A DNA stretch of 36,091 nucleotides. It comes from Verrucomicrobiota bacterium. Its GTDB lineage: Bacteria > Verrucomicrobiota > Verrucomicrobiia > Limisphaerales > SIBE01. Below are positions 908 through 20,193 of the stretch, in pieces. The notes under the pieces are model-generated. The model had not been told where the DNA came from. It was given only the letters and a program-made list of their open reading frames with translations, and did not search any database. Within the stretch, counting starts at the first letter, position 1. Every line of letters starts with the position of its first letter. The position numbers and the translations under genes are program-made. Location: assembly GCA_016871535.1 (NCBI GenBank), contig VHCZ01000035.1:1-36091 (forward strand). Reading direction: 5' to 3'.

Positions 908-3900
908 ATGAAACGCATCGCTTTCTTGGTCTGCGCTCTGGTGGCCGCAACTCGATTTCAATTCGCTGCCCCCGCAGACAAACCCACCGCTGGAACCGAC
1001 GCTCGCGTCAGTTTCTACAAACAGATTCGCCCCATCCTTCAGGCCAATTGCCAGGGCTGCCACCAGCCCGCCAAATCCAAGGGCGGGTACGTCATGACCG
1101 AGTTCGAGCGCCTGCTCGCGCCGGGTGACAGCGGCGAAAAGCCGGTCGTGGCAGGCCAACCCACGGCCAGCCATCTCGTCAAACAGATCACCCCGGTCAA
1201 AGGCGAAGCAGAAATGCCCAAAGGCAAGCCGCCTTTAAGTGAGCCCGAGATCGATCTGATTCGCCGGTGGATTGCGGAAGGCGCGAAGGACGACACGCCG
1301 CCGAATGCGCGCGAGCGCTTCGACAACGAACATCCCCCGGTCTATACGCGGCCGCCCGTCATCACTTCGCTGGACTATTCTCCCGATGGCTCCCTGATTG
1401 CCGTTGCGGGCTTCCATGAAGTCTTGCTGCACAAGGCCGATGGATCGGGTTTGGCCGGACGATTGGTCGGACTATCCGACCGGCTCCAGACCGTCCGGTT
1501 TTCGCCCGACGGCAAATTGCTGGCCGTCGCCGGTGGCCAACCCGCGCGCATGGGCGAGGTGCAAATCTGGGACGTGGCAAACAAGAAGCTCGTGGTGTCT
1601 GTCCCGATCAGCTACGACACGGTCTATGGCGTGAATTGGTCGCCGGACGGCAAACTCGTGTCGCTCGGCTGTCCGGATAACACGGTCCGCGCGATCGATG
1701 CCGCCACGGGCAAACTGGTCCTCCAACAAGGTTCCCACAACGATTGGGTGCTCGACACGGTGTTTTCCAAGGACGGTTCGCACGTCATTTCCGTCGGGCG
1801 CGACATGAGCGCCAAGTTGACGGAAACGGCCTCGCAGCGGTTCATCGACAACATCACCTCGATTACTCCGGGCGCGCTGCGCGGCGGCATCCAGAGCGTG
1901 GCACGGCATCCTGCAAAAGATGAAATTCTCGTTGGCGGCTCGGACGGGATTCCCCAAATCTATCGGGTCTTCCGCCAGACCGCGCGCAAGATCGGCGACA
2001 ACGCCGCGTTAATCCGCCGGTTCCCCGCGATGGAAGGACGCCTCTTCAGCGTCGATTACAGCGCAGATGGGAAACGCATCGCCGCCGGCGCCAGCCTCGA
2101 CGCGCACGGCGCCGTCAATATTTATGACGCCGTCTTCGATTCGACGATTCCGACCAATCTGGTGAAGTCGCTGGAGAAGGAAGTCTTCGCCCAAAGCGCC
2201 GAAGAAAAGGCCGCCATTGAGAAATATGTCACGTCCGACGTGAAGCTCGTGGCCTCCGCGACTTTCACCAACGCCGCGATCTATGCGATCAGTTTCAGTC
2301 CCGACGGCAAGCGGGTGGCGGCAGGCGGCAACGACGGTCTCGTTCGGCTGATCGAAGCCGAATCGGGAAAAGTGCTGCAAGAATTCGCCGCCGCACCGAT
2401 CACTGCGACAACGGCGACGCCCGCGGAAGCTGAAAAACTCGAAACCCGAAACCCGAAACCCGAAACTGCTCATACCACCTCGGCTCAGCCTGAGACCACG
2501 AAAGAGTCCCTGCCGAAAGGCGCTGAAGTCGCCGCTCTGGAAGTCGAGCCGTCGCAGATACGGCTCCCACGGCGCAATGAACATGTCCAGCTCATCGTTG
2601 TGGCGAAACTCGCTTCGGGTGACACGGCGGATGCCACCCGGCTTGCCTCCTATTCGGTGAGCAACGATCTGGGCGAGGTTTCCGAACGAGGCCGGTTCAC
2701 CGTTCGGAAAAATGGATCGGGCTCGATCCAGGTTGCGCTCGCGGGAAAAACCGCGACGGTTCCGGTGGAAGTGTCTGGATTGAAGGAGACGTTTGAAGCG
2801 GACTTCGTGCGAGACGTGAACCCCGTTCTCTCGAAATTGGGCTGCAACGCCGGCACCTGCCATGGCTCCAAGGATGGCAAGAACGGCTTCAAGCTTTCCC
2901 TGCGCGGTTACGATCCAATCTTCGACGTGCGGGCGTTTGCGGACGATTTGGCGGCGCGCCGCGTCAACCTCGCTTCGCCGGACGACAGTTTGATGCTGTT
3001 GAAAGCCACCGGAGCCGTGCCGCACGAAGGCGGGCAACGGACCACGATGGATTCCGAGTACTACGCCATCCTGCGGCAGTGGATCGCAGACGGGGCGAAG
3101 CTCAATGAAGAGTCCGCCCGCGTGACGCGCATCGAAATCATGCCGAGAAACCCGACCGTGCAGGACATTGGCGCGCGCCAGCAAATGCGGGTCGCCGCGA
3201 CCTATGCCAACGGCTCCACGCGCGACGTCACGGCCGAGTCATTCATCGACAGTGGCAACACGGACATCGCCTCGGCCGATCCGTCCGGGCTGATCACGAC
3301 CTTGCGCCGGGGCGAAGCGCCGATCCTGGCGCGCTACGAGGGCGCCTATGCGGCGACCACGCTCACGGTGATGGGCGACCGCAGCGGTTTCGTCTGGAAG
3401 GACCAACCGGCAAACAATCGCATCGACCAGCTTGTCGCCGCGAAATGGAAGCGGATGAAGATTCTACCGAGCGACCTCTGCACGGACACCGAATTCATCC
3501 GCCGCGTGTATCTCGATTTGGTTGGGCTGCCGCCAAGCGCCGAAGATGTCCGGCTGTTTCTCGAAGACTCACAGGAGGTTCAAATCAAGCGCGACGCGCT
3601 GGTCGAACGGCTCATGGCCAGCCCGGAGTTCGTGGAGCATTGGGCCAACAAGTGGGCGGACTTGCTGCAAGTGAACCGCAAGTTCCTCGGCGAACCCGGG
3701 GCCCAGCTTTTCCGCGACTGGATTCGCAAGGAGATCGAAAACAACACGCCGTACGACGAATTTGTCCGCAAGATCCTGACCGCCTCCGGTTCAAACAAGG
3801 AAAACCCGGCCGCTTCTTACTACAAAGTGCTGCGTGCTCCGACCGAGACAATGGAGAACACCACCCACCTGTTTCTGGCGACTCGATTCAACTGCAACAA

Positions 3901-6052
3901 GTGCCACGATCACCCGTTCGAGCGCTGGACGCAGGATCAGTACTACCATCTCGCTTCCTTCTTCGCGCAAGTCGAGTTCAAGAAGGACCCCGCGAGTGGG
4001 GATCGGATGGTCGGCGGCACCGCCGTGGAGGGGGCGAAGCCGCTCTTCGAAATCGTGGCGGACAAGAAGGAAGGCGACGTCAAACACGACCGCACGGGTA
4101 AAATTACGCCGCCGGATTTCCCGTATCCCGCGAAATTCAGTTTGAGCCAGACCAATGAAACGCGCCGCGAAAAGCTCGCGTCCTGGCTGACGTCGTCCGA
4201 CAATCGCTATTTCGCGCTGAGCTACGTGAATCGATTGTGGGGTTACTTGATGGGCGTGGGGCTGATTGAGCCGCTGGATGATATTCGCGCCGGCAATCCG
4301 CCGAGCAATCCGGAGTTGCTCGACTATCTGGCGCGAGAGTTCATCCAAAGCGGCTTCAACACGCGGCACATGCTTCGTTTGATCTGCCAGTCGCGCGTTT
4401 ATCAGCTTTCGATCACGACGCACGAATGGAACGTGGACGACAAAATCAATTATTCCCACGCGATGGCGCGGCGTTTGCCGGCGGAGGTTTTGGTCGATGC
4501 GGTGTTTCGGGTGACCGGTTCCACCTCGTTTTTCCCCGGTCTTCGACCCGGGACGCGCGCCCAGCAGTTGCCTGATTCGGCGGTGGATTTGCCCAGCGGT
4601 TTCCTCGCTAATCTGGGCCGTCCGCCCCGCGAGAGCGCCTGCGAATGCGAACGCAGCAACGACATTCGGCTCAGCTCGGTCATGTCGCTCCTGAGCGGGC
4701 CGGCCGTCTCTGCCGCCGTGAACGATCCGCGCAACGACCTGGCGTCGCTCGTCCGGGCTGAACCGGACGACCGAAAGCTCGTTCAGGAGGTTTTCCTCCG
4801 CGTCCTCAACCGACCGGCCGCGGACCATGAAGTCGATTCCACGCTGGCGACGATGAACGAGATGGCGCGAGATCACGGCCGCCTCACCAACGCGCTGGCC
4901 AAGGCCGAAGCCGAATGGACTGTCACCAGGCAAAAGCGCGAGAAAGAACGCGCGGAAGCCGTCGCCAAAGCTGAAGCGGAGTTGACCGCGTATTTGTCGC
5001 AACGCGCGCCGAAAATCGCGGCGATCGAACGCCAGCGCCAGGAGAAGATCGCGGCCGCGGATCTGGCCGTAAAGGAAGCCGAACCTTCTTTGCCCGAAAA
5101 GCTGTCCCGGTGGGAAGCCGAACTGGAGGATGAACGCTTTGCCACGCGGTGGATTCCGCTCGCCTTGAACGATGTCAGAGGCACGGGATCGGTGAAACTT
5201 GAAAAGCTGGCCGACGGCTCGGTGCGATCTTCGGGAAGCAAAGGCGAGTTGCCCAGTTACATCGTCAGCGCGGAGACGACCCTGGGCAAGATCACCGGGC
5301 TGAAGCTCGAAGTGCTGCCCGACGAAAGCTTGCCGGCGTTTGGTCCGGGCTTCAAAGACGGCAACTTTTTCTTGAGCGAGATCGCCGTGGAGGCGGGCAA
5401 CAAAACGAATGCGGCGAAGCTGGCCAGGATAAAAATCAAGGATGGCCGCACGGACCTGATCGAGGACAAATATGATTTGAAGCACGTGTTCGATGGGAGA
5501 AGCGAGCAAGGCCGCGCGGAAGGATGGACGATCGGCTACTCGAAAGTCGGAGAAGCGCATTGGGCCGCATTTGAGTTTGAGAAACCGGTTGCGGAAAAGG
5601 ATGGGGCCGCCTTGAGAATCACTCTCCAGCATGCGTACCAGGCGCCTTACGAGATCGGACGGTTCCGGATCTGGATCACAACCAATTCAAAGCCGATGGC
5701 GGAAGGACTCCCTTCGGATGTCGCCGAGGCGCTGAAAATTCCCCCGTTGGTGCGGACACCGCAGCAGGCCGCAAAGGCGCTGGATTACTATCGCTCTCTT
5801 GACGTTGGGATGCGGAAGCTGGAGCAGACTCTGGCGCTGGCGCGCAAACCGTTGCCTGAAGATGAGAAACTGAAGGAATTAGAAATAAGCCTGGCTCGTG
5901 CCGCCCGCCAAATCGAGACCGACCCGGCTTTGGCGCAGTTGCGTCAGGATGTGGAACTGAGCACGAAGCAGCTCAAGAATCGGCGTCTGACCGGAGCGCA
6001 AGACCTGGCGTGGGCGCTGATCAACACACCGTCATTCCTGTTCAACAGATGA
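908..6052 (+). CDS. PSCyt1-WD40-Big2-PSD1 (DUF1549/DUF1553) exported protein
   Basis: This is a 1714-residue secreted protein of the planctomycete/verrucomicrobial cytochrome type. In order it has a signal peptide (1-22), a PSCyt1 domain with heme motif C48-Q-G-C-H52, WD40-like repeats recognisable by recurring SPDGK (about 143-498), an Ig-like Big2 domain (about 545-628) and a CX4CH site at C646-NAGT-C651-H652. A second Big2 domain follows (about 738-824), then DUF1549 (about 836-1030) ending in C996-NK-C999-H1000 with DHPFERW, then DUF1553 (from about 1083). An inserted segment with ALNDVRGTGS and LPDESLPAFGPG (about 1410-1600) is flanked by coiled-coil helices, and the protein ends PSFLFNR as usual for DUF1553. 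The molecular role of the family is unproven; the three CxxCH-like sites suggest heme binding in the periplasm. DUF1549/DUF1553 genes normally neighbour a DUF1501 gene, and one lies about 800 bases downstream. The ATG at 908 directly begins the signal peptide. Confidence 0.92.
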   Translation: MKRIAFLVCALVAATRFQFAAPADKPTAGTDARVSFYKQIRPILQANCQGCHQPAKSKGGYVMTEFERLLAPGDSGEKPVVAGQPTASHLVKQITPVKGEAEMPKGKPPLSEPEIDLIRRWIAEGAKDDTPPNARERFDNEHPPVYTRPPVITSLDYSPDGSLIAVAGFHEVLLHKADGSGLAGRLVGLSDRLQTVRFSPDGKLLAVAGGQPARMGEVQIWDVANKKLVVSVPISYDTVYGVNWSPDGKLVSLGCPDNTVRAIDAATGKLVLQQGSHNDWVLDTVFSKDGSHVISVGRDMSAKLTETASQRFIDNITSITPGALRGGIQSVARHPAKDEILVGGSDGIPQIYRVFRQTARKIGDNAALIRRFPAMEGRLFSVDYSADGKRIAAGASLDAHGAVNIYDAVFDSTIPTNLVKSLEKEVFAQSAEEKAAIEKYVTSDVKLVASATFTNAAIYAISFSPDGKRVAAGGNDGLVRLIEAESGKVLQEFAAAPITATTATPAEAEKLETRNPKPETAHTTSAQPETTKESLPKGAEVAALEVEPSQIRLPRRNEHVQLIVVAKLASGDTADATRLASYSVSNDLGEVSERGRFTVRKNGSGSIQVALAGKTATVPVEVSGLKETFEADFVRDVNPVLSKLGCNAGTCHGSKDGKNGFKLSLRGYDPIFDVRAFADDLAARRVNLASPDDSLMLLKATGAVPHEGGQRTTMDSEYYAILRQWIADGAKLNEESARVTRIEIMPRNPTVQDIGARQQMRVAATYANGSTRDVTAESFIDSGNTDIASADPSGLITTLRRGEAPILARYEGAYAATTLTVMGDRSGFVWKDQPANNRIDQLVAAKWKRMKILPSDLCTDTEFIRRVYLDLVGLPPSAEDVRLFLEDSQEVQIKRDALVERLMASPEFVEHWANKWADLLQVNRKFLGEPGAQLFRDWIRKEIENNTPYDEFVRKILTASGSNKENPAASYYKVLRAPTETMENTTHLFLATRFNCNKCHDHPFERWTQDQYYHLASFFAQVEFKKDPASGDRMVGGTAVEGAKPLFEIVADKKEGDVKHDRTGKITPPDFPYPAKFSLSQTNETRREKLASWLTSSDNRYFALSYVNRLWGYLMGVGLIEPLDDIRAGNPPSNPELLDYLAREFIQSGFNTRHMLRLICQSRVYQLSITTHEWNVDDKINYSHAMARRLPAEVLVDAVFRVTGSTSFFPGLRPGTRAQQLPDSAVDLPSGFLANLGRPPRESACECERSNDIRLSSVMSLLSGPAVSAAVNDPRNDLASLVRAEPDDRKLVQEVFLRVLNRPAADHEVDSTLATMNEMARDHGRLTNALAKAEAEWTVTRQKREKERAEAVAKAEAELTAYLSQRAPKIAAIERQRQEKIAAADLAVKEAEPSLPEKLSRWEAELEDERFATRWIPLALNDVRGTGSVKLEKLADGSVRSSGSKGELPSYIVSAETTLGKITGLKLEVLPDESLPAFGPGFKDGNFFLSEIAVEAGNKTNAAKLARIKIKDGRTDLIEDKYDLKHVFDGRSEQGRAEGWTIGYSKVGEAHWAAFEFEKPVAEKDGAALRITLQHAYQAPYEIGRFRIWITTNSKPMAEGLPSDVAEALKIPPLVRTPQQAAKALDYYRSLDVGMRKLEQTLALARKPLPEDEKLKELEISLARAARQIETDPALAQLRQDVELSTKQLKNRRLTGAQDLAWALINTPSFLFNR
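2441..2466 (+). repeat. GAAACCC heptanucleotide tandem repeat in the PSD1 gene
   Basis: Three full GAAACCC units and a partial GAAAC lie in the linker between the WD40 region and the first Big2 domain. Because the unit is seven bases, the three reading phases give ETRNPKPE. The linker codes for a low-complexity Glu/Thr/Pro-rich stretch, so length changes here are probably tolerated. Confidence 0.8.
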
Positions 6053-6705: not shown

Positions 6706-6870
6706 GCTGGAAAAAGTGCCAGCACTGGAACCCCGTGTAAAGCCGCGACGGAAGCCCACAAACGCCTTGAACGGAAACCGAATCGGCTTACATTCTAAAC
6801 AACGCCTAACCCGTCAAAACTTATGCTACATATCCCTGGTGAATTCTGCACGGACCTCTGTGACGCCAAC

Positions 6871-8295
6871 ATGAAGCTGACGCGCCGCGATCTCCTTCGG
6901 ATCGGCGGATCGAGTATTCTTGGCCTTTCGCTTGGATCGATGTTCCAACTGACCGCCCGCGCCAAAGAAGCGGGCGAGAAGGGCGGCGGTCCGGGCTGGG
7001 GCAAAGCCAAAAGCGTCATCATGGTTTATCTCCAGGGCGGACCGAGCCATCTGGACCTCTGGGACCCCAAGGAGAACGTGGAGGACAAGATTCGCAGTCC
7101 GTTCAAGTCGATTCCGACGAAGATCCCCGGCGTCAATTTCACGGAGATTCTGCCGCAACTCGCGAAGGTGAACGACAAGTTCACCATGATCCGCTCGATG
7201 AGCTACACGCCGAACGGTCTTTTCAACCACACGGCGGCGATTTACCAGATCATGACCGGGTACACGACGGACAAGGTCAGCCCCTCCGGCCAATTGGAGC
7301 CGCCGAACCCGAAAGATTTCCCGAACTTCGGCTCGAACATCATCCGGCTCAAACCGGTTACGGACCCGATACTGCCGTTCGTCATGCTCCCTCGTCCGCT
7401 TCAGGAAAGCAACGTCGTCGGCAAAGGCGGCACGGCTGGCTTTCTCGGCAAAGCGTTCGATCCCTACTATCTCTTCCCCGACGGCGATGACATGGACATG
7501 ACGAAGATGGACAAGGTCAAGACGGACGACCTTAAGTTGCCGCAAGAAGTGTTCGCGATGCGTTTGCAGCGGCGCGCCCGGTTGCGCGACACGTTGAACG
7601 ACGCGATGCCGCAGATTGAGAAGGCGGTCGAAAGCTACAACCTCGACGAATACTACCAGCGCGCCCTGAACCTGATCGTCTCTGGCCGGGCGCGATCCGC
7701 CTTTGACCTGGGCCAGGAGCCGGACGCGGTGCGCGACCGTTATGGCCGGACCACATTCGGTCAAAGTTGTTTGTTGGCGCGGCGTCTGGTCGAGGCCGGC
7801 ACGCGCGTCGTCGAAGTCGTCTGGCCCAAAGTGGCGAACTCGGACAATCACTCGTGGGACGTGCACGTGGGGCTCACCCAGCGCATGAAGAACCAATCAG
7901 GGCCGATGCTTGATCAAGGGCTTTCGGCGCTCTTCGAGGACCTCGATCAACGCGGTTTGCTCAGCGAAACGCTCGTCGTTGCCATCGGTGAATTCGGGCG
8001 CAGCCCGCAGAAAGGCTTGAGCACGTCTGGCAACAGCAACAGTCCGGATGGCCGAGATCATTGGCCCTATTGCTACACGTCGGTCATCGGTGGAGCCGGG
8101 ATCCGGCAGGGTTACGTCCACGGCAAATCCGACAAGACCGCTTCGAGTCCGGCCGAGGAGCCGGTGCATCCGATGGAAGTGCTGGCGACCATTTACCACT
8201 CCTTCGGCATCGATCCGGACACGATCGTGTACAACCACCTCAACCAGCCGCGCGAACTGGTGAAAGCCCACGCCGTCACCAAGCTGTTCGCGTAA
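6871..8295 (+). CDS. DUF1501 domain protein, Tat-exported
   Basis: A 474-residue protein of the DUF1501 family, which has a sulfatase/alkaline-phosphatase-like fold. The N-terminus [20 protein letters not shown] is a twin-arginine signal (R5-R6), so it is probably exported folded. Family hallmarks are visible: [16 protein letters not shown] (about 52-67), [17 protein letters not shown] and GRDHWPYCY followed by GGAGIRQG near the C-terminus. An upstream in-frame TTG-type start at 6823 would bury the Tat signal, so ATG 6871 is preferred. DUF1501 genes normally pair with PSCyt1/PSD1 genes, and here the two flank the small minus-strand pair. The enzymatic role is not established in this family. 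No Shine-Dalgarno is visible. Confidence 0.92.
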
Positions 8296-9875: not shown

Positions 9876-12614
9876 ATGCGCTCTCCGTTTGAATCGCTTC
9901 CGGCCCGGGTGCTGCGCTTACTGGCGGGCTGTGTTTACCGCTACCCTCGGCTGTTCCTCTATCCCCACGCGGTTCTGTTGCTCGTTTCGATCTTCTACAC
10001 GATCGATCAATTGGAGTTCAGCACGAGCCGGGACAATTTGGTCGGCTCGAACAAGAAGTACCACACGAACTTCCTGCATTTCAAAAAGGAGTTCGCCGTC
10101 CAGGATGATCACGTCGCCGTCGTCGAGAGTGAAGATCGGGAGAAGAACCGCCAATTCGTGGAACGCCTGGGCGCCAGGCTGGAAGCCGAGACGAATCTCT
10201 TCAAAAGTGTCTTTTACAAAGGCGATTTGAAAATGATGGGGCCGAAAGCGCTCCTGTTCCTCCCCGAAGCGACCCTCGCCAATCTCCACCAAACCCTCAA
10301 AGACTACCGGCCTTTTTTGCAGCAGTTCGCGCAGGCGACCAATCTGAATTCCCTGTTCCGCCAGATCAACCACCAGTTTCGCACGGCCCGACAAGAGGAG
10401 AACTCGGAGAACAAATCGCTGATCGGCGCGCTCCCGGCATTGCGGCGGATCATCCAGCAGGCCACCGATAGCCTCAATCGTTCGGGCACGCCGCCCTCTC
10501 CCGGCATCTCGGCTTTGTTCAACGCGGGGGAAGAGGCCGAGGAGCAGCAGTACGTGACCTTCGCCCATGGCCGAATTTATCTGGTCTCGGCGCGAGCGCT
10601 AACCCGGGAACTGGACAGCCGGGCCGTAAAACGCTTGCGCGAATTGGTCCAGAAAACTCAGGAGGAAGTCCCCGGCGTCAACGTCGGGATCACGGGAGAA
10701 ACGGTCCTGGAGCACGATGAAATGAATCAATCTCAGGAGGACTCGACGGTGGCCGCGATCGTGTCCCTGCTGCTTTGCGCGCTGCTGTTCATCGTGGCCT
10801 ATCGGGAAACAGGCCGGCCCATCAAAGCCATCGCCAGCCTGGTGGTTGGCCTGGCTTATACCATGGGTTTTGCGACGTGGGCCATCGGACACCTGAATAT
10901 TTTGACCGTGACCTTTCTGCCGATTCTGAGCGGCCTCGCCATCGACTTTGGCATTCATCTGATCACACGCTACGAAGAGGAATTGCGCCGGGGCCGAGCC
11001 GTGAGCGAAGCGCTCGAAAAAGCCATCGTGAACACCGGATTGGGGATATTCACGGGCTGTTTCACCACCGCGGGTGCGTTTCTCGCGATGGGCCTCACGG
11101 ACTTCAAAGGAATCCAGGAAATGGGAATCATCACCGGGGGCGGGATGCTGATTTGTTTGGCGCCAATGATGACCTTGCTCCCGGTTCTTCTGATGCGGGG
11201 GAATCAGAACGCGATGGACCAGCACACGGCGCAAATCGATCGGCGCGCGCGGATCGAGCGGATCTGGCTCGAAAGGCCGGTCTGGGCCATCGCGATCACG
11301 GCGATGCTTTGCGGTCTTTCGATGACACAGTTTGGCAGGGTCTATTTCGACTACAATCTCCTGAACATGCAGGCCAAAGGACTGCCTGCCGTGGAGTTCG
11401 AGAGGAAACTGATCGACGGCGCTTCAAAGTCCGTTCTGTTCGCCGCCGTGGTGGCTGACTCCGTGCCAGAGGCGGTTCGATTGGAGCCTCAACTCACGAA
11501 TTTGACCGCGGTCTCAAGCGTCGATTCGATGAGCCGATTTCTCGCCGAAGACCAAACCGTGAAGTTGATCCTCGTGAAGCAAATCAAGGAAGAGATCGCG
11601 CCAATCTGTTTTGCGGAGACAGACGGGGAATCGGCGAACACGGCTGAACTGCGCGAAACCCTTGGATTCACCCAAAGCTACTTGAGTCTCGCGGGGAAAG
11701 CGGTTGAAAAGGAAGGCGACACAGAACTCTTCCAGGAATTGAAGGCGCTGTGGGATGCCATCGAGGCCCTGCGGCATCGCATCAGTCTCGGTGAATCGGC
11801 AAAGGATTCGGCCAAATTGACCGCGTTTCAACGGGCTCTCTTCGCGGACATTCACCAGACTTTCGAGGCCCTGAAAACCCAAGATGACCGGGCGCCGCTG
11901 CGCGCGGAAGATTTGCCGGAAGGCCTTCGGACACGATTCATCGGAAGATCCGGGAAACAGCTCCTGCAGGTTTATCCGAAAGAGGACGTCTGGCAGCGGG
12001 ACAAGCAACAGGAGTTCATCGAGCAGATCCGCACGATTGATCCCAACGTGACCGGGACGCCAGTCCAGCTTTTCGAGTACACCCGGTTGCTCAAGGAGAG
12101 TTATGAGGAGGCCGCGTGGTACGCCCTGGGGGCCATTGCCCTGTTGGTGCTCGTGCATTTCCGCCGGGTTTCCAGTGTGCTCCTGGCGTTGTTGCCCGTA
12201 GGCATTGGCACCGCGTGGCTGGTGGGCTTGATGGGTTTCCTGGGAGTTCCGTTCAACCCGGCGAACATCATGACCTTGCCGCTGGTCATTGGAATCGGCG
12301 TGACCAATGGCGTCCACATCTTGAACCGGTTCACTGAGGAAAGGAACCCCGGAATCCTCGCCAAGAGCACCGGAAAAGCGGTGCTGGTTTCGGGACTGAC
12401 GACGATCGCTGGCTTTGGAAGTTTGATCCCCGCCAAGCACCAGGGCATCGCTAGCCTGGGAATCGTGATGTCGGTGGGCGTGGCGACCTGCATGGTCGCT
12501 GCACTGACCCTCTTGCCCGCACTGCTTAACCTGAGAACGCGCTCGAAGTGGAAAACAAAAGAACCCAGTGGCGACAGTCTATTATCGACACTGGGTCAGG
12601 AGGAACCGAGGTAA
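9876..12614 (+). CDS. HpnN-like RND/MMPL family transporter
   Basis: A 912-residue inner-membrane transporter of the resistance-nodulation-division superfamily, close in size to hopanoid exporter HpnN (about 870). The architecture is a duplicated half: TM1 at about 28-46, a large periplasmic loop, five to six helices (about 288-441) with GLAIDFGIHLITRYEEE, then a second loop and a second helix cluster (about 745-887) with GIGVTNGVHILNRFTEE. The polar residues of these G-x-D/T-x-G-x-H motifs match MMPL transporters, where they serve proton relay. Periplasmic loops are helical, as in HpnN. No hopanoid synthesis gene is in the window, so the substrate is unknown; the downstream Mla-type cassette favours a lipid. 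The ATG at 9876 follows the 84-bp repeat by 29 bases. Confidence 0.85.
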   Translation: MRSPFESLPARVLRLLAGCVYRYPRLFLYPHAVLLLVSIFYTIDQLEFSTSRDNLVGSNKKYHTNFLHFKKEFAVQDDHVAVVESEDREKNRQFVERLGARLEAETNLFKSVFYKGDLKMMGPKALLFLPEATLANLHQTLKDYRPFLQQFAQATNLNSLFRQINHQFRTARQEENSENKSLIGALPALRRIIQQATDSLNRSGTPPSPGISALFNAGEEAEEQQYVTFAHGRIYLVSARALTRELDSRAVKRLRELVQKTQEEVPGVNVGITGETVLEHDEMNQSQEDSTVAAIVSLLLCALLFIVAYRETGRPIKAIASLVVGLAYTMGFATWAIGHLNILTVTFLPILSGLAIDFGIHLITRYEEELRRGRAVSEALEKAIVNTGLGIFTGCFTTAGAFLAMGLTDFKGIQEMGIITGGGMLICLAPMMTLLPVLLMRGNQNAMDQHTAQIDRRARIERIWLERPVWAIAITAMLCGLSMTQFGRVYFDYNLLNMQAKGLPAVEFERKLIDGASKSVLFAAVVADSVPEAVRLEPQLTNLTAVSSVDSMSRFLAEDQTVKLILVKQIKEEIAPICFAETDGESANTAELRETLGFTQSYLSLAGKAVEKEGDTELFQELKALWDAIEALRHRISLGESAKDSAKLTAFQRALFADIHQTFEALKTQDDRAPLRAEDLPEGLRTRFIGRSGKQLLQVYPKEDVWQRDKQQEFIEQIRTIDPNVTGTPVQLFEYTRLLKESYEEAAWYALGAIALLVLVHFRRVSSVLLALLPVGIGTAWLVGLMGFLGVPFNPANIMTLPLVIGIGVTNGVHILNRFTEERNPGILAKSTGKAVLVSGLTTIAGFGSLIPAKHQGIASLGIVMSVGVATCMVAALTLLPALLNLRTRSKWKTKEPSGDSLLSTLGQEEPR

Positions 12615-12675: not shown

Positions 12676-14100
12676 ATGGATTCACGAGCATTCCGAATTG
12701 TAGTCCTCGCGTCTTTCAGTCTTATGCTGCGCACGGCTCAGGGCGAGGAGCACTCTTTCGGCCCCCTTTTTGACCGGAGTGCCCTGACACTCAGCATCGG
12801 AACTCGCACGGAACTCTTTGGGCCTTTCATGAGCCGCGAATTGGCGGAATCCGGAAGCTCAATCACATTTTCACCGCTGTTCACCTACCACAGCGATCTC
12901 GGAGCCGACGCCAAAGAACTGAGCGTTGTTTACCCGATATTGAGTCACAAACGTTTCGGGGCGGAGTATCGGTTTCAGTTCCTCCAGGCTTTCAGTTTCG
13001 CGGGCGGCGCCAGTTCCCAAGGGCAAACCAATAGCCGCTTTACGCTTTTCCCGTTCTACTTCCAGCAACGTTCATCCGATTCGAACCGGAATTACACCGC
13101 CGTAGTGCCTTTGTTCGGCCACCTGGAAAACCGGTTGTTCCGAGATGAAGTGGACTTTGTGCTGCTTCCGCTTTACTTGAAGACCCGGAAGCGCGACGTG
13201 ACGACGGCGAATTATCTTTTTCCGTTTTTCCACCGCCGACAGGGTGACGGGCTGGCCGGCTGGCAACTCTGGCCGTTGGTTGGAATGGAACACAAAGCCG
13301 TCACGGCCAGGACCAATGCCGTCGGCGATATTGAGAAGGTGGGCGGGCACGACAAAACGTTCTTCCTCTGGCCGTTCTACTTCAACAACAAGCTCGGCCT
13401 GGGAACCGAAAACCCGGAAACCCAGCGCCTGCTCCTCCCGCTTTTCAGCGCTCAACGCTCTCCCCGCCGCGACTCCACAACCTATTTCTGGCCGCTCGGT
13501 TTCACTTACACGCATGACCGCGAGAAGCAATACCGTGAGTGGGACGCTCCCTGGCCGTTGGTCGTGTTCGCCCGAGGCGAAGGCAAAACGGCCAACCGCA
13601 TCTGGCCGCTCTTCAGCCAGGCCAGGAACGCGACCCTCGAAAGCGATTTTTATCTCTGGCCCCTCTACAAATCGGACCGCGCCAACTCCAGCCCGCTCGA
13701 CCGCAGAAGGACTCGCCTTTTGCTCTTTCTTTACTCGGACCTCACCGAACGAAACACCTCAACGGGCACCGCTTTGGAACGAACCGATCTCTGGCCGCTG
13801 TTCACCGCCCGCCGCGATCACAACGGCAACGAACGCCTCCAGATGTTCAGCCTCATCGAACCGCTGCTCCCGGCCAGCAAGACGGTGGAGCGGCTCTACT
13901 CCCCGCTCTGGTCGGTCTGGCGCTCGGAAAAGAACCGTTCGACCGGCGCCGCCAGCCAATCGTTCCTGTGGAACTTGTATCGCCGCGAAATCACCCCTAC
14001 CTCGAAAAAATGCTCGCTGCTGTTCGGCCTGTTCCATTATCAATCGGACCCCAACGGCACGCGGGTGCGGTTGTTTTACGTGCCAATAAAGAAAGGCTAG
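12676..14100 (+). CDS. Exported protein with about 20 W-P-L-[FY] repeats, unknown function
   Basis: A 474-residue protein with a signal peptide (1-23, ending TAQG-EE). The whole mature chain is built of short motifs of the form [FLI]-[WLF]-P-[LF]-[FY], about 12-25 residues apart. Examples are FSPLF 65, LFPFYF 124, LLPLYL 163, LFPFF 181, LWPLV 198, LWPFYF 231, LLPLF 253, FWPLGF 271, IWPLF 309, LWPLY 327, LWPLF 372 and YSPLW 408. Between motifs lie polar turns rich in Arg, Asp and Asn. This reads as a regular beta-strand/turn repeat, either an outer-membrane barrel or a beta-solenoid. I know similar uncharacterised proteins only from Verrucomicrobiota and relatives. It sits 61 bases after the RND gene and 2 bases before mlaE, so an envelope lipid-transport role is inferred. 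Confidence 0.8.
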   Translation: MDSRAFRIVVLASFSLMLRTAQGEEHSFGPLFDRSALTLSIGTRTELFGPFMSRELAESGSSITFSPLFTYHSDLGADAKELSVVYPILSHKRFGAEYRFQFLQAFSFAGGASSQGQTNSRFTLFPFYFQQRSSDSNRNYTAVVPLFGHLENRLFRDEVDFVLLPLYLKTRKRDVTTANYLFPFFHRRQGDGLAGWQLWPLVGMEHKAVTARTNAVGDIEKVGGHDKTFFLWPFYFNNKLGLGTENPETQRLLLPLFSAQRSPRRDSTTYFWPLGFTYTHDREKQYREWDAPWPLVVFARGEGKTANRIWPLFSQARNATLESDFYLWPLYKSDRANSSPLDRRRTRLLLFLYSDLTERNTSTGTALERTDLWPLFTARRDHNGNERLQMFSLIEPLLPASKTVERLYSPLWSVWRSEKNRSTGAASQSFLWNLYRREITPTSKKCSLLFGLFHYQSDPNGTRVRLFYVPIKKG

Positions 14101-14102
14101 CG

Positions 14103-14849
14103 ATGTTCCAAAACATCGGCGAGATCGTGGTTCTGTTCTGGAAAACGCTCCGGGCGTTGCCCAAGACTTTTCGCCAGCGCCGAAAAGTCTTTGAGCAACT
14201 CTTCGAAATCGGCAACGCCAGCCTGTTGATGGTTTGCATCCTCTCGCTCTTCATTGGCGGGGTCGTCGCCCTGGTCAGCGGGCCGGTGCTCGCCGAGCGA
14301 GGGCTCTCCAGCTACATCGGCGGGCTGGTGGGCTTGTCCATGTGCAAAGAGCTCGCGCCCGTGATGATGGCTGTCCTCATTGCCGGGCGGATCGGTTCGG
14401 CGATGGCCGCCGAAATCGGCTCCATGCGCGTGTATCAAGAGATCGACGCCTTGCGCACCATGAACATCAATCCGGTGGATTACCTGGTCCTGCCCAGACT
14501 CGTGGCGATCAGCTTCGCCCTGCCTGTCCTGGTCATTTTCTCGATCCTGATCGGCTGGCTCGGTGGCGCGGTGGTGTCCACGACGAACCACCGCATCGGC
14601 GTCCCTTTCCAATCCTTCTTCAACAATCTGCGTCAGATGGTGGAATTCGGCGATGTGTTCAATGGCTTTATCAAGAGCTGCGTTTTCGCGGTCGTCATCG
14701 GCATCGTCTCGTGTCATCAAGGCCTCCAAACGATCGGAGGCCCGCGCGGCATCGGCCGGTCGGTGACCAAAGCCGTGGTCAACTCCATCGTCCTCATCGT
14801 GATCCTCGATTATTTTTTGACGCGCCTCCTGCTCTTCCTGGACCTATGA
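14103..14849 (+). CDS. mlaE: MlaE-type ABC permease
   Basis: A 248-residue integral membrane protein of the MlaE/YrbE family, the permease of an ABC system moving phospholipids between the membranes. Family signature: ELAPVMMAVLIAGRIGSAMAAE, then GSMRVYQEIDALRTM, the coupling region, and PRLVAISFALPVLV. About five to six hydrophobic segments are seen. I chose ATG 14103, 2 bases after the repeat-protein stop and preceded by AAAGG, over a much longer open frame that is out of frame with the real upstream gene. The stop overlaps the mlaF start (ATGA). It needs MlaF and MlaD, which follow directly. Confidence 0.93.
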   Translation: MFQNIGEIVVLFWKTLRALPKTFRQRRKVFEQLFEIGNASLLMVCILSLFIGGVVALVSGPVLAERGLSSYIGGLVGLSMCKELAPVMMAVLIAGRIGSAMAAEIGSMRVYQEIDALRTMNINPVDYLVLPRLVAISFALPVLVIFSILIGWLGGAVVSTTNHRIGVPFQSFFNNLRQMVEFGDVFNGFIKSCVFAVVIGIVSCHQGLQTIGGPRGIGRSVTKAVVNSIVLIVILDYFLTRLLLFLDL

Positions 14850-15613
14850 GCGACGCGACTCTCACCCAGAAAGGCATTGGCGTCCGCGTGCGCGGGCTGC
14901 GCAAAAGCTTTAACGGCCAGACGGTGCTCCAGGGAATTGACCTGGACGTCGCCCCGGGAGAAATCTTTGTCATCATGGGGCCAAGCGGAAGCGGCAAATC
15001 CGTTTTGCTCAAACACATCATCGGTCTCGAGGAACCGGATCAAGGCGAGATTCTGGTCGAAGGCGAGCCGATTCAGTCCGAGACCGTCCGGGACAAATAC
15101 CGCCTGGCCATGGTATTCCAGTCGGGCGCTCTCCTGAACTCACTCACCGTCGGAGAAAACGTCGGCCTCTTTTTGAGCGAACATCGCCTCAAGCCCCAGT
15201 CCGAAATCGACCGCATCGTTTCGGAGAAACTCGCACTCGTCGATCTCCAGGGGCTGGAGTCGCGCTCTCCGAGCGAACTTTCGGGCGGAATGAAGAAACG
15301 CGCCGCCATTGCGCGCGCCCTCGCCATGGACCCGCAATTGATCCTTTACGATGAACCGACGAGCGAACTGGACCCCCTCATGGCCGTGACGATCGCGGAA
15401 GAGATTCTGAAGCTCAAACAGCGCATGCACGTCACCTCCATCGTCGTGTCGCACGACCGCGACCTCGCGTTCAGCGTGGCCGACCGCATCGCCATGATTC
15501 ACCAGGGCAAAATCCTGGCTATCGGGGTTCCCGCCGAAATCAAAAGGAATTCCGATCCGTTAATCCAAAAATTTCTGACCGCTGAATTCAGTCCGGAGAA
15601 AATGATATTATGA
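14846..15613 (+). CDS. mlaF: MlaF-type ABC transporter ATPase
   Basis: A 255-residue ATP-binding subunit. Walker A is GPSGSGKS (about 46-53), the Q-loop lies in MVFQSGAL, the signature is LSGGMKKR, Walker B is LILYDEPT, and the switch histidine lies in VVSHD. The KKR after the signature and the FQSGALLNSLTVGENV stretch are typical of MlaF/Ttg2A. The D-loop region reads TSELDP where many relatives have TAGLDP. It powers the MlaE permease at the cytoplasmic face. ATGA overlaps at both ends with mlaE and mlaD indicate one transcript and coupled translation. Confidence 0.95.
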   Translation: MSDATLTQKGIGVRVRGLRKSFNGQTVLQGIDLDVAPGEIFVIMGPSGSGKSVLLKHIIGLEEPDQGEILVEGEPIQSETVRDKYRLAMVFQSGALLNSLTVGENVGLFLSEHRLKPQSEIDRIVSEKLALVDLQGLESRSPSELSGGMKKRAAIARALAMDPQLILYDEPTSELDPLMAVTIAEEILKLKQRMHVTSIVVSHDRDLAFSVADRIAMIHQGKILAIGVPAEIKRNSDPLIQKFLTAEFSPEKMIL

Positions 15614-16581
15614 AAAACACACTCGAAACTCGTCTGGGAATCTTCTTCGCCCTCGCGCTCATCGCCGCGACTCTGATCTTGGAAATGGTCGGCGGCACCG
15701 ATTTCTTCAAGCGCGGCTCCACCGTCCGCGCCCGCTTCAACAGCGTCCAGGAGCTTAAAGAGGGCGACCCCGTCAAAATGGCCGGCGTCCAGATCGGCCG
15801 CGTCGAAACAATCGCCCTGGCCGACAACAAAGTGGAAGTCGTCATGAAACTGACGCGGCGCGATCAGGTCCGCACCGACAGCAAAGCGACCATCAAATTC
15901 GTCGGCTTGCTCGGCCAGCATTACGTGGCCATCGATTTCGGCACCCAGGCCGCGCCGCTGGCCACGGCCGACACGCTCCTGCAATCCATCGAGCCGGTCG
16001 ATATGAGCACGATCATGGTCAAGCTGGACAGCGTCGCCACCGGCGTGGAAAACCTGACCAAAAGTTTCGGCGGCGACACGATTCAGAACTTGCTCGGCCC
16101 GTTCACGGATTTCTTGAAAGAGAACCGACCGAAGCTTTCCGCCGCGCTTGATAATCTCACCAACATTTCCACCCAGATCGCCAAAGGGGAGGGTACGATT
16201 GGCCGGCTGATTTACGATGACACGCTCCATCAATCCGCGTTGAACACGCTGACCAACTTCAACCGCACGGCCGACGACCTCCGGGGCACGATTGCCGAGG
16301 CGCGAGGCGTGGTGGATCAAGTCAACGCCGGCGCCGGCACGCTGGGCAAACTGGTCAAGGACGAGACGCTCTATCGCGAGACCGCGTCCGCCATGACGCA
16401 GGCTCGCGAGATTCTCCAGAAGATCAACCAGGGCCAGGGGTCCGTGGGCAAGCTCGTCAACGACGAGAGCCTCTTCAAAAACGTGAAACTCACCTTGCAG
16501 AAGGTCGAGAAAGCCACCGAAGGCCTGGAAGACCAGGGCCCGCTCAGCGTGCTCGGAATCGTCGTGAACAGCCTGTTTTGA
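15610..16581 (+). CDS. mlaD: MlaD-type MCE domain protein
   Basis: A 323-residue protein with one N-terminal transmembrane anchor (about 7-27) and an MCE domain (about 36-115) containing VKMAGVQIGRVETIAL and KFVGLLGQHYVAIDFG. MCE domains form hexameric rings that hold lipids in the periplasm. The remaining 200 residues are helical, with repeated A/G-x-G-T-[IL]-G-[RK]-L units (GEGTIGRLIYDD, GAGTLGKLVKDE, GQGSVGKLVNDE), as in extended MlaD proteins of this phylum. The three repeats are spaced about 40-50 residues apart. GGAG lies 10 bases before the ATG, which overlaps the mlaF stop. Confidence 0.93.
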   Translation: MKNTLETRLGIFFALALIAATLILEMVGGTDFFKRGSTVRARFNSVQELKEGDPVKMAGVQIGRVETIALADNKVEVVMKLTRRDQVRTDSKATIKFVGLLGQHYVAIDFGTQAAPLATADTLLQSIEPVDMSTIMVKLDSVATGVENLTKSFGGDTIQNLLGPFTDFLKENRPKLSAALDNLTNISTQIAKGEGTIGRLIYDDTLHQSALNTLTNFNRTADDLRGTIAEARGVVDQVNAGAGTLGKLVKDETLYRETASAMTQAREILQKINQGQGSVGKLVNDESLFKNVKLTLQKVEKATEGLEDQGPLSVLGIVVNSLF

Positions 16582-17606: not shown

Positions 17607-18500
17607 GTGTCCAAGCGTCCAAGGCCTACGTTTAACTGGATCCCTTGGTGGATCATTGCACTCGCCGCGTGCCTGGAGATCTCGTCGGCCGACCTGGAAA
17701 CCATTCCGAGGGCCCGTTGGCTTGCGGATTCTGACAACGATGGCGACAGCTTCCTCGTCGAAGGCCAAGGACAACAGTTGCGCATTCGCCTTTACTTCGT
17801 CGATTGCCCGGAAACATCGGCAAGCGCAACTACTGATGCCGAGCGGGTGCAGGAACAGATGCGGTACTTCGGACTGACCAATGCCGCGCAGGTCATTCGG
17901 TTCGGCGAGGAAGCCAGGCGTTTTACCGAGCGGATGCTTGCCAGGCCGTTTACCGTTCAAACCGCTCGCGCCAAGGCGCCCGGTCGGTTTGGAGGGCGTG
18001 TCTATGCGTTCATCAAAGTTGCTTCCGGTGACGACCTCGCCGAAATGCTGGTGCAGGAAGGCCTGGCCAGAGCCCATGGCGTGGAGCGTGAATCTGCCAC
18101 GGGTGTTTCAGCCCAGGAAACGAGCCGAAAACTCAAAGACCTGGAAGACTCAGCCAAGCTGAAAAAGGCCGGCATCTGGGCCGAATCGAACCCGGATCGC
18201 ATCCCCGAAATGCGCCTGCAGCAGCGTCAAAAACTACAAGAGCTGGATCGCCTGCGCCAGGAATCCAAAGCCGCCCGAGCAACGAACCAACGACGCATCG
18301 ACCTGAACACCGCGAGTGTTCGGGAACTGAAATCGGTGTCTGGCATCGGCTTGGTGCTTGCGCAGCGCATTATCCAGGCGCGGCCTTTCCAATCCGTGGA
18401 CGATCTGCTCCGAGTCAAAGGCATAGGACAAAAGAAATTGGACGCGATTCGACCTCGCGTCGTAGTCAATCCAAGAAGAACCGCGCCTGATCCAAAATGA
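17607..18500 (+). CDS. Thermonuclease (SNase) fused to ComEA-type helix-hairpin-helix
   Basis: A 297-residue protein with a hydrophobic N-terminus (WIPWWIIALAACLEI) that serves as signal peptide or anchor. An SNase-like domain (about 40-195) carries the conserved active-site pattern: DNDGD around residue 45, R-L-Y-F-V-D66-C-P-E69, and a late Arg in GGR131-VYAF. A coiled linker (200-228) leads to a ComEA-like (HhH)2 domain (231-286), RIDLNTASVRELKSVSGIG and RVKGIGQKKLDAI. SNases cut single- and double-stranded nucleic acid with calcium; (HhH)2 domains grip DNA in natural transformation. The fusion suggests an envelope nuclease that binds DNA. The start is GTG at 17607. Its tail overlaps the convergent toxin pseudogene by 35 bases. 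Confidence 0.85.
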   Translation: MSKRPRPTFNWIPWWIIALAACLEISSADLETIPRARWLADSDNDGDSFLVEGQGQQLRIRLYFVDCPETSASATTDAERVQEQMRYFGLTNAAQVIRFGEEARRFTERMLARPFTVQTARAKAPGRFGGRVYAFIKVASGDDLAEMLVQEGLARAHGVERESATGVSAQETSRKLKDLEDSAKLKKAGIWAESNPDRIPEMRLQQRQKLQELDRLRQESKAARATNQRRIDLNTASVRELKSVSGIGLVLAQRIIQARPFQSVDDLLRVKGIGQKKLDAIRPRVVVNPRRTAPDPK

Positions 18501-18958: not shown

Positions 18959-19227
18959 GCGCCCGCCGGCTCAAGGGCTAAGACCCCAAGGCCCGACCGC
19001 CGGCGCAGTTCGCGGAGATGTTCATAAACCAGTCGGCGGTACTGCGCTTCGCGCTCCTGCTTCGCCTCGTAAAAGCCGGCCCAGCGGATGAAATCGCGCG
19101 ACTTCTCCAGTTCCCCGGCCCGGTAGCAGTGGTAGAAATCGGCAGACAGCAGACCATATTGCTCTTCCAATGCGGCCAACTCCGCGTCCAGGCCATGAAT
19201 GTCACGGATGATCTCTTCGCGTTTCAT
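18955..19227 (-). CDS. Small helical protein, probable antitoxin partner
   Basis: A 90-residue protein starting MKREEIIRDIHGLDAELAAL; an upstream ATG at 19284 is less likely as it adds Cys/Trp-rich residues. It is predicted fully helical, with YHCYRAGELEKSRDFIRWAGFYEAK in the centre and an Arg-rich end. It has no DNA-binding motif that I can name. The ATGA overlap with the TumE-like gene and the antitoxin-first order support an antitoxin or chaperone role by position only. Confidence 0.6.
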   Translation of the reverse strand: MKREEIIRDIHGLDAELAALEEQYGLLSADFYHCYRAGELEKSRDFIRWAGFYEAKQEREAQYRRLVYEHLRELRRRSGLGVLALEPAGA

Positions 19228-19335
19228 GCCCCTCAAAATAGGGCAGCAGCGCTCGCACAACAAGCCTGCAAAACGCCATGGCAAGACAACTTATCGATTT
19301 CTCTCCTCGTGTCCGCGCACGGTCTGTGTCCGGCA

Positions 19336-20175
19336 TCAACGAGGCTGCCGGCCTTCCAGTTCTGCCCTCCAGACCCGCGCCCAGCCATCGCCTTGCGCGG
19401 CGCGTTTTTGAGGCTGGATTTCGACCGTAAGGATGCTTTCAGCCTCAACGCCGTACGGTCCGCGCACGACCGGTTCTCCTGTAGGCCCAACTACCAACGA
19501 ACAACCGATGCACTTCCGGCCCTTCCAGGGACCCGACTCGATCCAGCCGACATTGCTCGCGCCCGCGATCCAGAGGCTAAAGTCCTTCGCCACAGGCCCG
19601 TAATTATCGATCCAAAGCTTGCCGTACGGATTCTCCGCGTTGTCGTGATCGGCAGGCACCGCCCAGGCGCATGGGGAAAGAATCACTTCGGCCCCCATGT
19701 AACCCAGCGCGCGGCTCACGACCTGTCCGCGCGCAAAACCGTCCGCGCAAATCATCAGGCCGATCGTGCCCAGCTTCGTGCGCGCAACTTGCAATCGATC
19801 GCCCAGCGCATAGACATGACGTCCAATCTCCAGTTCATTGATCTTGCGATGGTGGAGGAGAATTTCGCCAGCCGGATCGATGAAGACGGCCGCGTTGAAA
19901 ATCTTGCTCCCTGCCCGTTCGACCAGGCCGGAGCAAAGGTGCACTCCAGTTTCTCGCGCCAGGCGGCGCAAGCGCGCGCAGGACTCGCCGTCCGGGACTT
20001 CGTCTGCCTCCGTTTCCGCCGAAGGATCCGTCCAGCCCAAGGTCAACGCTTCAGGCAACAACACAACTTCGGCGCCGTCTGCGGCGGCGCGGCGGACCCA
20101 CTCCTCCGCATGCTTGAGGTTCTCCAGTTTGCGTCCGGCTCGGACCACCATCTGAATGAGAGCGAGTTTGAACAT
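19336..20175 (-). CDS. Carbon-nitrogen hydrolase (nitrilase superfamily)
   Basis: A 279-residue enzyme of the nitrilase/omega-amidase superfamily, full length. The catalytic triad can be placed at E42 (VVLLPEALTLG), K111 (HHRKINEL) and C143 (LMICADGF). The N-terminus MFKLALIQM is typical. Members hydrolyse amides, carbamoyl groups or nitriles in the cytoplasm; the substrate cannot be told from sequence. It lies 18 bases downstream of the symporter gene on the same strand, so a link between uptake of a compound and its hydrolysis is plausible. Confidence 0.9.
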   Translation of the reverse strand: MFKLALIQMVVRAGRKLENLKHAEEWVRRAAADGAEVVLLPEALTLGWTDPSAETEADEVPDGESCARLRRLARETGVHLCSGLVERAGSKIFNAAVFIDPAGEILLHHRKINELEIGRHVYALGDRLQVARTKLGTIGLMICADGFARGQVVSRALGYMGAEVILSPCAWAVPADHDNAENPYGKLWIDNYGPVAKDFSLWIAGASNVGWIESGPWKGRKCIGCSLVVGPTGEPVVRGPYGVEAESILTVEIQPQKRAAQGDGWARVWRAELEGRQPR

Positions 20176-20193
20176 GGCTGACCTGTGAACTGA

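What the first reader, a model, noticed from the sequence alone, without database searches (positions are those of the whole stretch)
12676..14100. W-P-L-[FY] repeat protein of unknown function in the lipid-transport operon
About twenty motifs [FLI]-[WLF]-P-[LF]-[FY] separated by polar turns form a regular beta-type repeat, unlike any named outer-membrane component I know. Its place 61 bases after an HpnN-like exporter and 2 bases before mlaE suggests an outer-membrane or periplasmic partner of the Mla-type transporter, perhaps in the role of MlaA.
Basis: partly seen in the sequence, partly recalled or inferred. Interest (0 to 1): 0.65.

Follow-up and report, generated by a model that had tools for sequence, protein, structure and literature searches.

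The report
Ribbon-shaped partner of a lipid transporter
Across the Verrucomicrobiota, one version of the Mla lipid transporter is almost always encoded next to an undescribed exported protein, predicted to fold as one long flat ribbon with a greasy edge, which could be a missing piece of how these bacteria move lipids between their two membranes.

Summary
The ORF 12676-14100 is real and belongs to a large undescribed family (called WPLF here). No Pfam, NCBIfam, PHROGs or PDB sequence match was found. The strict motif occurs 8 times, not about 20 (chance 0.03); counting degenerate hydrophobic turns gives 18.

Two AlphaFold models and coevolution in 145 homologues support one long single-layer antiparallel beta-ribbon of about 44 short strands, most like TCP10, MORN and OspA sheets. 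It is neither a membrane barrel nor a solenoid. The W-P-L-F turns alternate strictly with polar turns, so they should line one edge.

The link to the transporter is strong. Among WPLF genes with enough flank, mlaE lies directly downstream in 44 of 48 loci of the window's order and 36 of 37 from other families and classes. WPLF follows one MlaEFD type; order genomes lacking WPLF keep only other MlaE types. HpnN is an addition of the order (32 of 39 upstream, 0 of 19 elsewhere). MlaA and MlaC were not found in the window's genome.

Best reading: a dedicated periplasmic partner of this MlaEFD, binding a membrane or lipid by its hydrophobic edge. Partnership and fold are well supported; the lipid-transfer step and its membrane are inferred.

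The parts
12676..14100 (+). WPLF protein, 474 aa, N-terminal signal peptide (about residues 1-24), then about 44 short beta strands
   Evidence: ORF and translation; 36-member alignment A1; AF2 pLDDT 88.2; hydrophobic N-terminus in 89 of 93 homologues by a simple hydropathy rule, no internal TM segment
12868..13845 (+). most regular part of the ribbon: hydrophobic W-P-[LF]-[FY] turns alternating with polar turns (about residues 65-390)
   Evidence: turn analysis, motif count
13843..13920 (+). irregular insert (about residues 390-415) with two short helices, on the hydrophobic-turn side
   Evidence: AF2 secondary structure
9876..12614 (+). HpnN-like RND/MMPL exporter, 912 aa, upstream in the same operon
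   Evidence: TIGR03480 E 4.5e-178, but 594 bits against a cut-off of 752; MMPL PF03176
14103..14849 (+). mlaE, ABC permease (type linked to WPLF)
   Evidence: PF02405 E 3.5e-73; tree
14846..15613 (+). mlaF, ABC ATPase
   Evidence: PF00005; MlaF NF008809 among the hits
15610..16581 (+). mlaD, long MCE protein (323 aa)
   Evidence: PF02470 E 2.4e-19; W-type MlaD lengths mostly 296-371 aa by a crude ORF rule

Best explanation
WPLF is a dedicated periplasmic partner of one type of long-MlaD MlaEFD transporter in Verrucomicrobiota. After export it folds as a single-layer antiparallel beta-meander of about 44 short strands, roughly 20 nm long if laid straight. Its W-P-[LF]-[FY] turns all fall on one edge and make that edge hydrophobic; the other edge is polar. 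I propose that the hydrophobic edge seats in a membrane leaflet (outer membrane more likely) or grips lipid tails, and that the ribbon hands lipids between that membrane and the MlaD tube, filling the place of MlaA/MlaC. In the window's order the HpnN-like exporter was added to the same operon. Shown by sequence analysis: family, operon link, joint loss, export signal, ribbon topology (prediction plus coevolution) and turn alternation. Inferred: membrane contact, which membrane, lipid transfer, direct contact with MlaD.
For: Operon link: mlaE directly downstream in 44/48 loci of the order and 36/37 elsewhere. Specificity: WPLF-linked MlaE fall into two 100%-supported sets (4 label changes against 28.8 shuffled); a single clade is not rejected (p-AU 0.52, group chosen after seeing the tree). 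Three genomes with unlinked WPLF carry the same MlaE type elsewhere (L141-143). Joint loss: order genomes lacking WPLF whose MlaE I fetched have only 25-40% identical, non-W MlaE, the exception being the 57%-complete G016; the full-length HpnN-like exporter was not found in the nine searched. Near-universal in the order: 81 of 88 good genomes; 101 of 239 across the phylum. MlaA and MlaC not found in the window's genome. Topology. Hydrophobic edge: mean turn hydrophobicity +0.46 against -0.43, difference 0.90 against a shuffled maximum of 0.57 in 20000.
Against: No experiment. Four WPLF-bearing relatives also have MlaA, two of them MlaC, so it is not a simple substitute. Many MlaEFD copies in the phylum lack WPLF (MlaE in 221 of 239 genomes, WPLF in 101). 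MORN1, a structural look-alike, did not bind membranes in vivo or in vitro and was judged a protein-protein module (PMC7725318). The edge assignment rests on AF2 strand boundaries. No evidence says which membrane is touched.
Confidence: 0.5

Rival explanations
1. WPLF is a scaffold or adaptor: the ribbon holds MlaD, HpnN or the cell wall together, its hydrophobic edge being a protein-protein or dimer interface. It carries no lipid.
For: Closest folds are TCP10, MORN1 and OspA sheets; TCP10 and MORN sheets bind proteins, and MORN1 dimerises and does not bind membranes (PMC7725318). In the order it lies between two different transporters.
Against: About 18 exposed W/F/L/Y-rich turns along one edge are more than an ordinary protein contact needs; HpnN is not a constant neighbour (0 of 19 outside the order).
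Confidence: 0.27
2. WPLF is an assembly, stability or regulatory factor for the long MlaD hexamer (for example for its barrel-less C-terminus), not a transport component.
For: Linked MlaD are long and PVC MlaD lack the barrel domain found elsewhere (PMC10665443).
Against: Many Verrucomicrobiota have long MlaD without WPLF.
Confidence: 0.12
3. WPLF is an integral outer-membrane beta-barrel or porin-like protein.
For: Signal peptide; LptD, VDAC and porins among structural hits at Z 6-7.5.
Against: Strands mostly 5-7 residues, mean strand hydrophobicity negative, no alternation (P 0.17); TCP10 and OspA score clearly higher (Z 10-11).
Confidence: 0.05
4. WPLF serves hopanoids specifically, together with HpnN.
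For: In the order nearly all WPLF genomes carry a strong squalene-hopene cyclase match, and most genomes lacking WPLF lack it.
Against: Phylum-wide only 13 of 240 genomes have a match at E 1e-30 or better, so nearly all WPLF carriers outside the order lack it, and several cyclase carriers lack WPLF. G098 keeps WPLF and W-type mlaE without HpnN or cyclase; G145 has the cyclase without WPLF.
Confidence: 0.06

Closest known systems
Mla system of Escherichia coli (MlaA, MlaC, MlaFEDB)
   Same: Same ABC core (MlaE, MlaF, MlaD) encoded in the operon
   Different: No MlaA, MlaC or MlaB gene in this operon, MlaA and MlaC not found in the genome; WPLF matches neither family; MlaD is of the long type
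MlaEFD of Veillonella parvula (PMC10665443)
   Same: MlaEFD with elongated MlaD and no MlaA/MlaC
   Different: There MlaD itself carries an outer-membrane barrel; PVC MlaD lack it, and a separate WPLF protein is encoded here
MORN repeat and TCP10 (CPAP/Sas-4) sheets, OspA central sheet
   Same: Free-standing single-layer antiparallel beta-sheet (TCP10c Z 11.3, 133 residues, rmsd 5.0; MORN1 Z 10.0, 157 residues, rmsd 4.4)
   Different: No sequence relation found; WPLF is exported and has alternating hydrophobic W-P-L-F and polar turns
HpnN hopanoid RND exporter; BstA sterol exporter
   Same: The upstream gene is an HAE3-type relative
   Different: Scores below the curated cut-offs of both; known HpnN works without a co-transcribed outer-membrane partner (reported in PMC6394551)

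Membership tests
MlaA | match to Pfam PF04333 | tested here: not met
   no PF04333 hit at E up to 10 in P0001, 35 relatives and 10 distant homologues
MlaA | lipoprotein signal (lipobox cysteine) | tested here: not met
   6 lipobox-like strings in 93 N-termini (5 distinct proteins), none shared across the family; none in the window protein
MlaA | outer-membrane complex with a porin | not testable with these tools
   needs biochemistry
MlaC | match to Pfam PF05494 | tested here: not met
   no hit
Transmembrane beta-barrel | alternating hydrophobic/polar residues within strands | tested here: not met
   mean alternation 0.57 against 0.52 shuffled, P 0.17
Transmembrane beta-barrel | strands long enough to cross a membrane (about 8-12 residues) | tested here: not met
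   most of the 44 predicted strands are 5-7 residues, a few 8
TamB/VPS13-like lipid-groove bridge | one continuous hydrophobic face formed by alternating residues | tested here: not met
   same alternation test; hydrophobic residues sit in turns
MORN repeat family | match to a Pfam MORN model | tested here: not met
   no MORN hit at E up to 10
MORN/TCP10-type fold | single-layer antiparallel beta-sheet of hairpin repeats | tested here: met
   predicted only: VIA Z 9-11 in two models; 60 of the top 100 coupled pairs on predicted hairpin axes against 23.4 expected
Accessory component of an MlaEFD operon | conserved position next to mlaEFD | tested here: met
   80 of 85 scorable loci
Accessory component of an MlaEFD operon | gained and lost with the cognate mlaE | tested here: met
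   WPLF-lacking order genomes retain only non-W MlaE, except the 57%-complete G016
Accessory component of an MlaEFD operon | physical or functional interaction | not testable with these tools
   needs pull-down or genetics
HpnN (upstream gene) | NCBI curated cut-off for TIGR03480 | tested here: not met
   594 against 751.85 bits

The most novel reading that the evidence does not exclude
A non-homologous replacement for MlaA/MlaC: a beta-ribbon about 20 nm long whose hydrophobic turn edge acts as a rail or anchor along which lipids pass between the outer membrane and a long-MlaD tube, a lipid-handling architecture distinct from chaperones, barrels and beta-groove bridges.
Probability: 0.25. Interest if true: 0.88.

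Novelty: new variant of a known kind. Interest (0 to 1): 0.68.

Why it matters
Grasekamp et al. 2023 (PMC10665443) showed that most diderm bacteria have MlaEFD without MlaA/MlaC, that PVC MlaD lack a barrel, and asked whether missing outer-membrane components are replaced by non-homologous proteins. WPLF is a concrete candidate in a whole phylum and makes the question testable by gene deletion, localisation and lipid binding. The hydrophobic-edge ribbon would also be a new way for a protein to meet a membrane or lipid.

Tried and rejected
Sequence searches of Pfam, NCBIfam, PHROGs and the PDB gave nothing. Foldseek against viral models gave weak matches, MORN proteins among them. Evidence that the ribbon closes into a ring: long-range coupled pairs cluster no more than chance (largest cluster 7, null mean 7.5), so dropped. 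Lipid-groove and transmembrane-barrel readings were tested by strand alternation and not supported. Hopanoid specificity was tested at order and phylum level and not supported overall. A conserved upstream gene outside the order: only ordinary neighbours such as rRNA methyltransferases by my reading of the translations.

Full report
THE OBSERVATION. The ORF 12676-14100 (+) encodes 474 residues with a signal peptide. It starts 61 bases after an HpnN-like RND gene and ends 2 bases before the ATG of mlaE. The strict motif occurs 8 times against 0.03 expected, a relaxed form 13 times against 0.59. 'About twenty' is right only if degenerate hydrophobic turns are counted. Neighbours were confirmed by profile: MMPL/HpnN-like, MlaE, MlaF, MlaD.

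A FAMILY. No library recognises the protein, nor 35 relatives or 10 distant homologues. One genome scan gave 41 related loci, nearly all titled Verrucomicrobiota. A 36-row profile finds one copy in most genomes of the order: 130 of 146, or 81 of 88 good ones, and 101 of 239 good genomes across the phylum. 89 of 93 N-termini are hydrophobic and no internal membrane helix was seen, by simple hydropathy rules.

NEIGHBOURHOOD. Flanks were not used to select the loci. Where at least 1 kb downstream is held, mlaE follows on the same strand in 44 of 48 loci of the order and 36 of 37 others. The HpnN-like gene lies upstream in 32 of 39 loci of the order and in none of 19 elsewhere. So WPLF-mlaEFD is the core, and HpnN a later addition or a separate loss. 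Exceptions: L008, L014, L020, L238 and L097.

WHICH MLA. MlaE is present in 221 of 239 good genomes, often in two or three copies. In the order a second MlaEF locus sits beside a clpC-like gene without WPLF (L121-L124; clpC by my reading of the translation). In an 89-row tree, WPLF-linked MlaE fall into two 100%-supported sets (4 label changes, 28.8 when shuffled); one clade is not rejected (p-AU 0.52; quick tree, group chosen after seeing it). The mlaE genes of three genomes with unlinked WPLF (L141-L143) fall among the linked ones. Order genomes without WPLF keep only non-W MlaE at 25-40% identity to the window's, except G016, 57% complete, which has a W-type mlaE. The full-length HpnN-like gene was not found in nine such genomes; three have only weak RND matches.

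MLAA AND MLAC were not found in the window's genome, 96.8% complete, but MlaA is present in four of eight family members and MlaC in two, all with WPLF.

HOPANOIDS. In the order, 6 of 6 tested WPLF-lacking genomes lack a strong squalene-hopene cyclase, against 5 of 90 WPLF carriers (my threshold E 1e-60). These are about three lineages, not six independent events. Further WPLF-lacking genomes: G129, G147, G121 and G131 without, G145, G137 and G016 with a cyclase. Across the phylum sample only 13 of 240 have one at E 1e-30, so WPLF is not tied to hopanoids in general.

FOLD. AF2 gives pLDDT 88.2 and about 44 strands of mostly 5-7 residues. A second model, of a 42%-identical relative, shows the same pattern at pLDDT 76.6; it shares most of its alignment rows with the first, so it is not independent. 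VIA matches of the first: ApoB100 belt Z 9.5 and TCP10 Z 9.2 with large rmsd. Of the second: TCP10c Z 11.3 (133 residues, rmsd 5.0), OspA Z 10.8, MORN1 Z 10.0 (157 residues, rmsd 4.4), porins about 7. Z under about 13 for repeats may reflect a common arrangement only. Mean-field coupling analysis of 145 homologues places 60 of the top 100 pairs (separation 4-23) on predicted hairpin axes against 23.4 expected; the couplings themselves do not use AF2. The per-hairpin axis score (2.48, null maximum 2.35) used a null not exactly matched and is secondary.

THE EDGE. Numbering the turns along the meander, odd turns average +0.46 and even turns -0.43 on the Wimley-White scale; difference 0.90, shuffled maximum 0.57 in 20000. 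The first two turns were left out because the N-terminal strands are uncertain. In a meander, alternate turns lie on opposite edges, so the W-P-L-F turns should line one edge. Strands show no significant in/out alternation (P 0.17). The 20 nm length is my estimate (44 x 4.8 angstrom, flat).

MECHANISM. I judge a dedicated MlaEFD partner nearly certain (about 0.9), the ribbon likely (about 0.85), the hydrophobic edge probable (about 0.75), and lipid exchange with the outer membrane possible (about 0.4). The main rival is a scaffold, since MORN1 is a protein-interaction module (PMC7725318).

NOVELTY. Paper searches found no description; the library is open-access only. The system is a variant of Mla; the protein family and the edge pattern appear undescribed.

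Noticed in passing
L121 (G000:C114), L122-L124: A second mlaE-mlaF set lies beside a clpC-like gene in the window's genome and in WPLF-lacking relatives, without WPLF.
   Followed up: partly
L097:7927-9384 (G260): An orphan WPLF homologue with no mla or HpnN-like gene within about 8 kb.
   Followed up: partly
L238 (G103, one-contig genome): WPLF present without HpnN upstream or mlaE downstream; whether a W-type mlaE lies elsewhere was not checked.
   Followed up: no
G002:C243:19036-19536: Weak second profile match (24.5 bits) in a 479-aa frame, a possible distant paralogue.
   Followed up: no
window 17607-18500: Fusion of a staphylococcal-nuclease domain with a ComEA-like helix-hairpin-helix domain.
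   Followed up: no
window 908-6052 and 6823-8295: A WD40/PSCyt1/PSCyt2/PSD1 protein followed by a DUF1501 protein.
   Followed up: no
window 19018-20181: A 387-aa ORF with no Pfam match at E 0.001.
   Followed up: no
L009, L021, L025: Records titled Omnitrophota or Akkermansia muciniphila carry close relatives of this operon and may be mislabelled MAGs.
   Followed up: no
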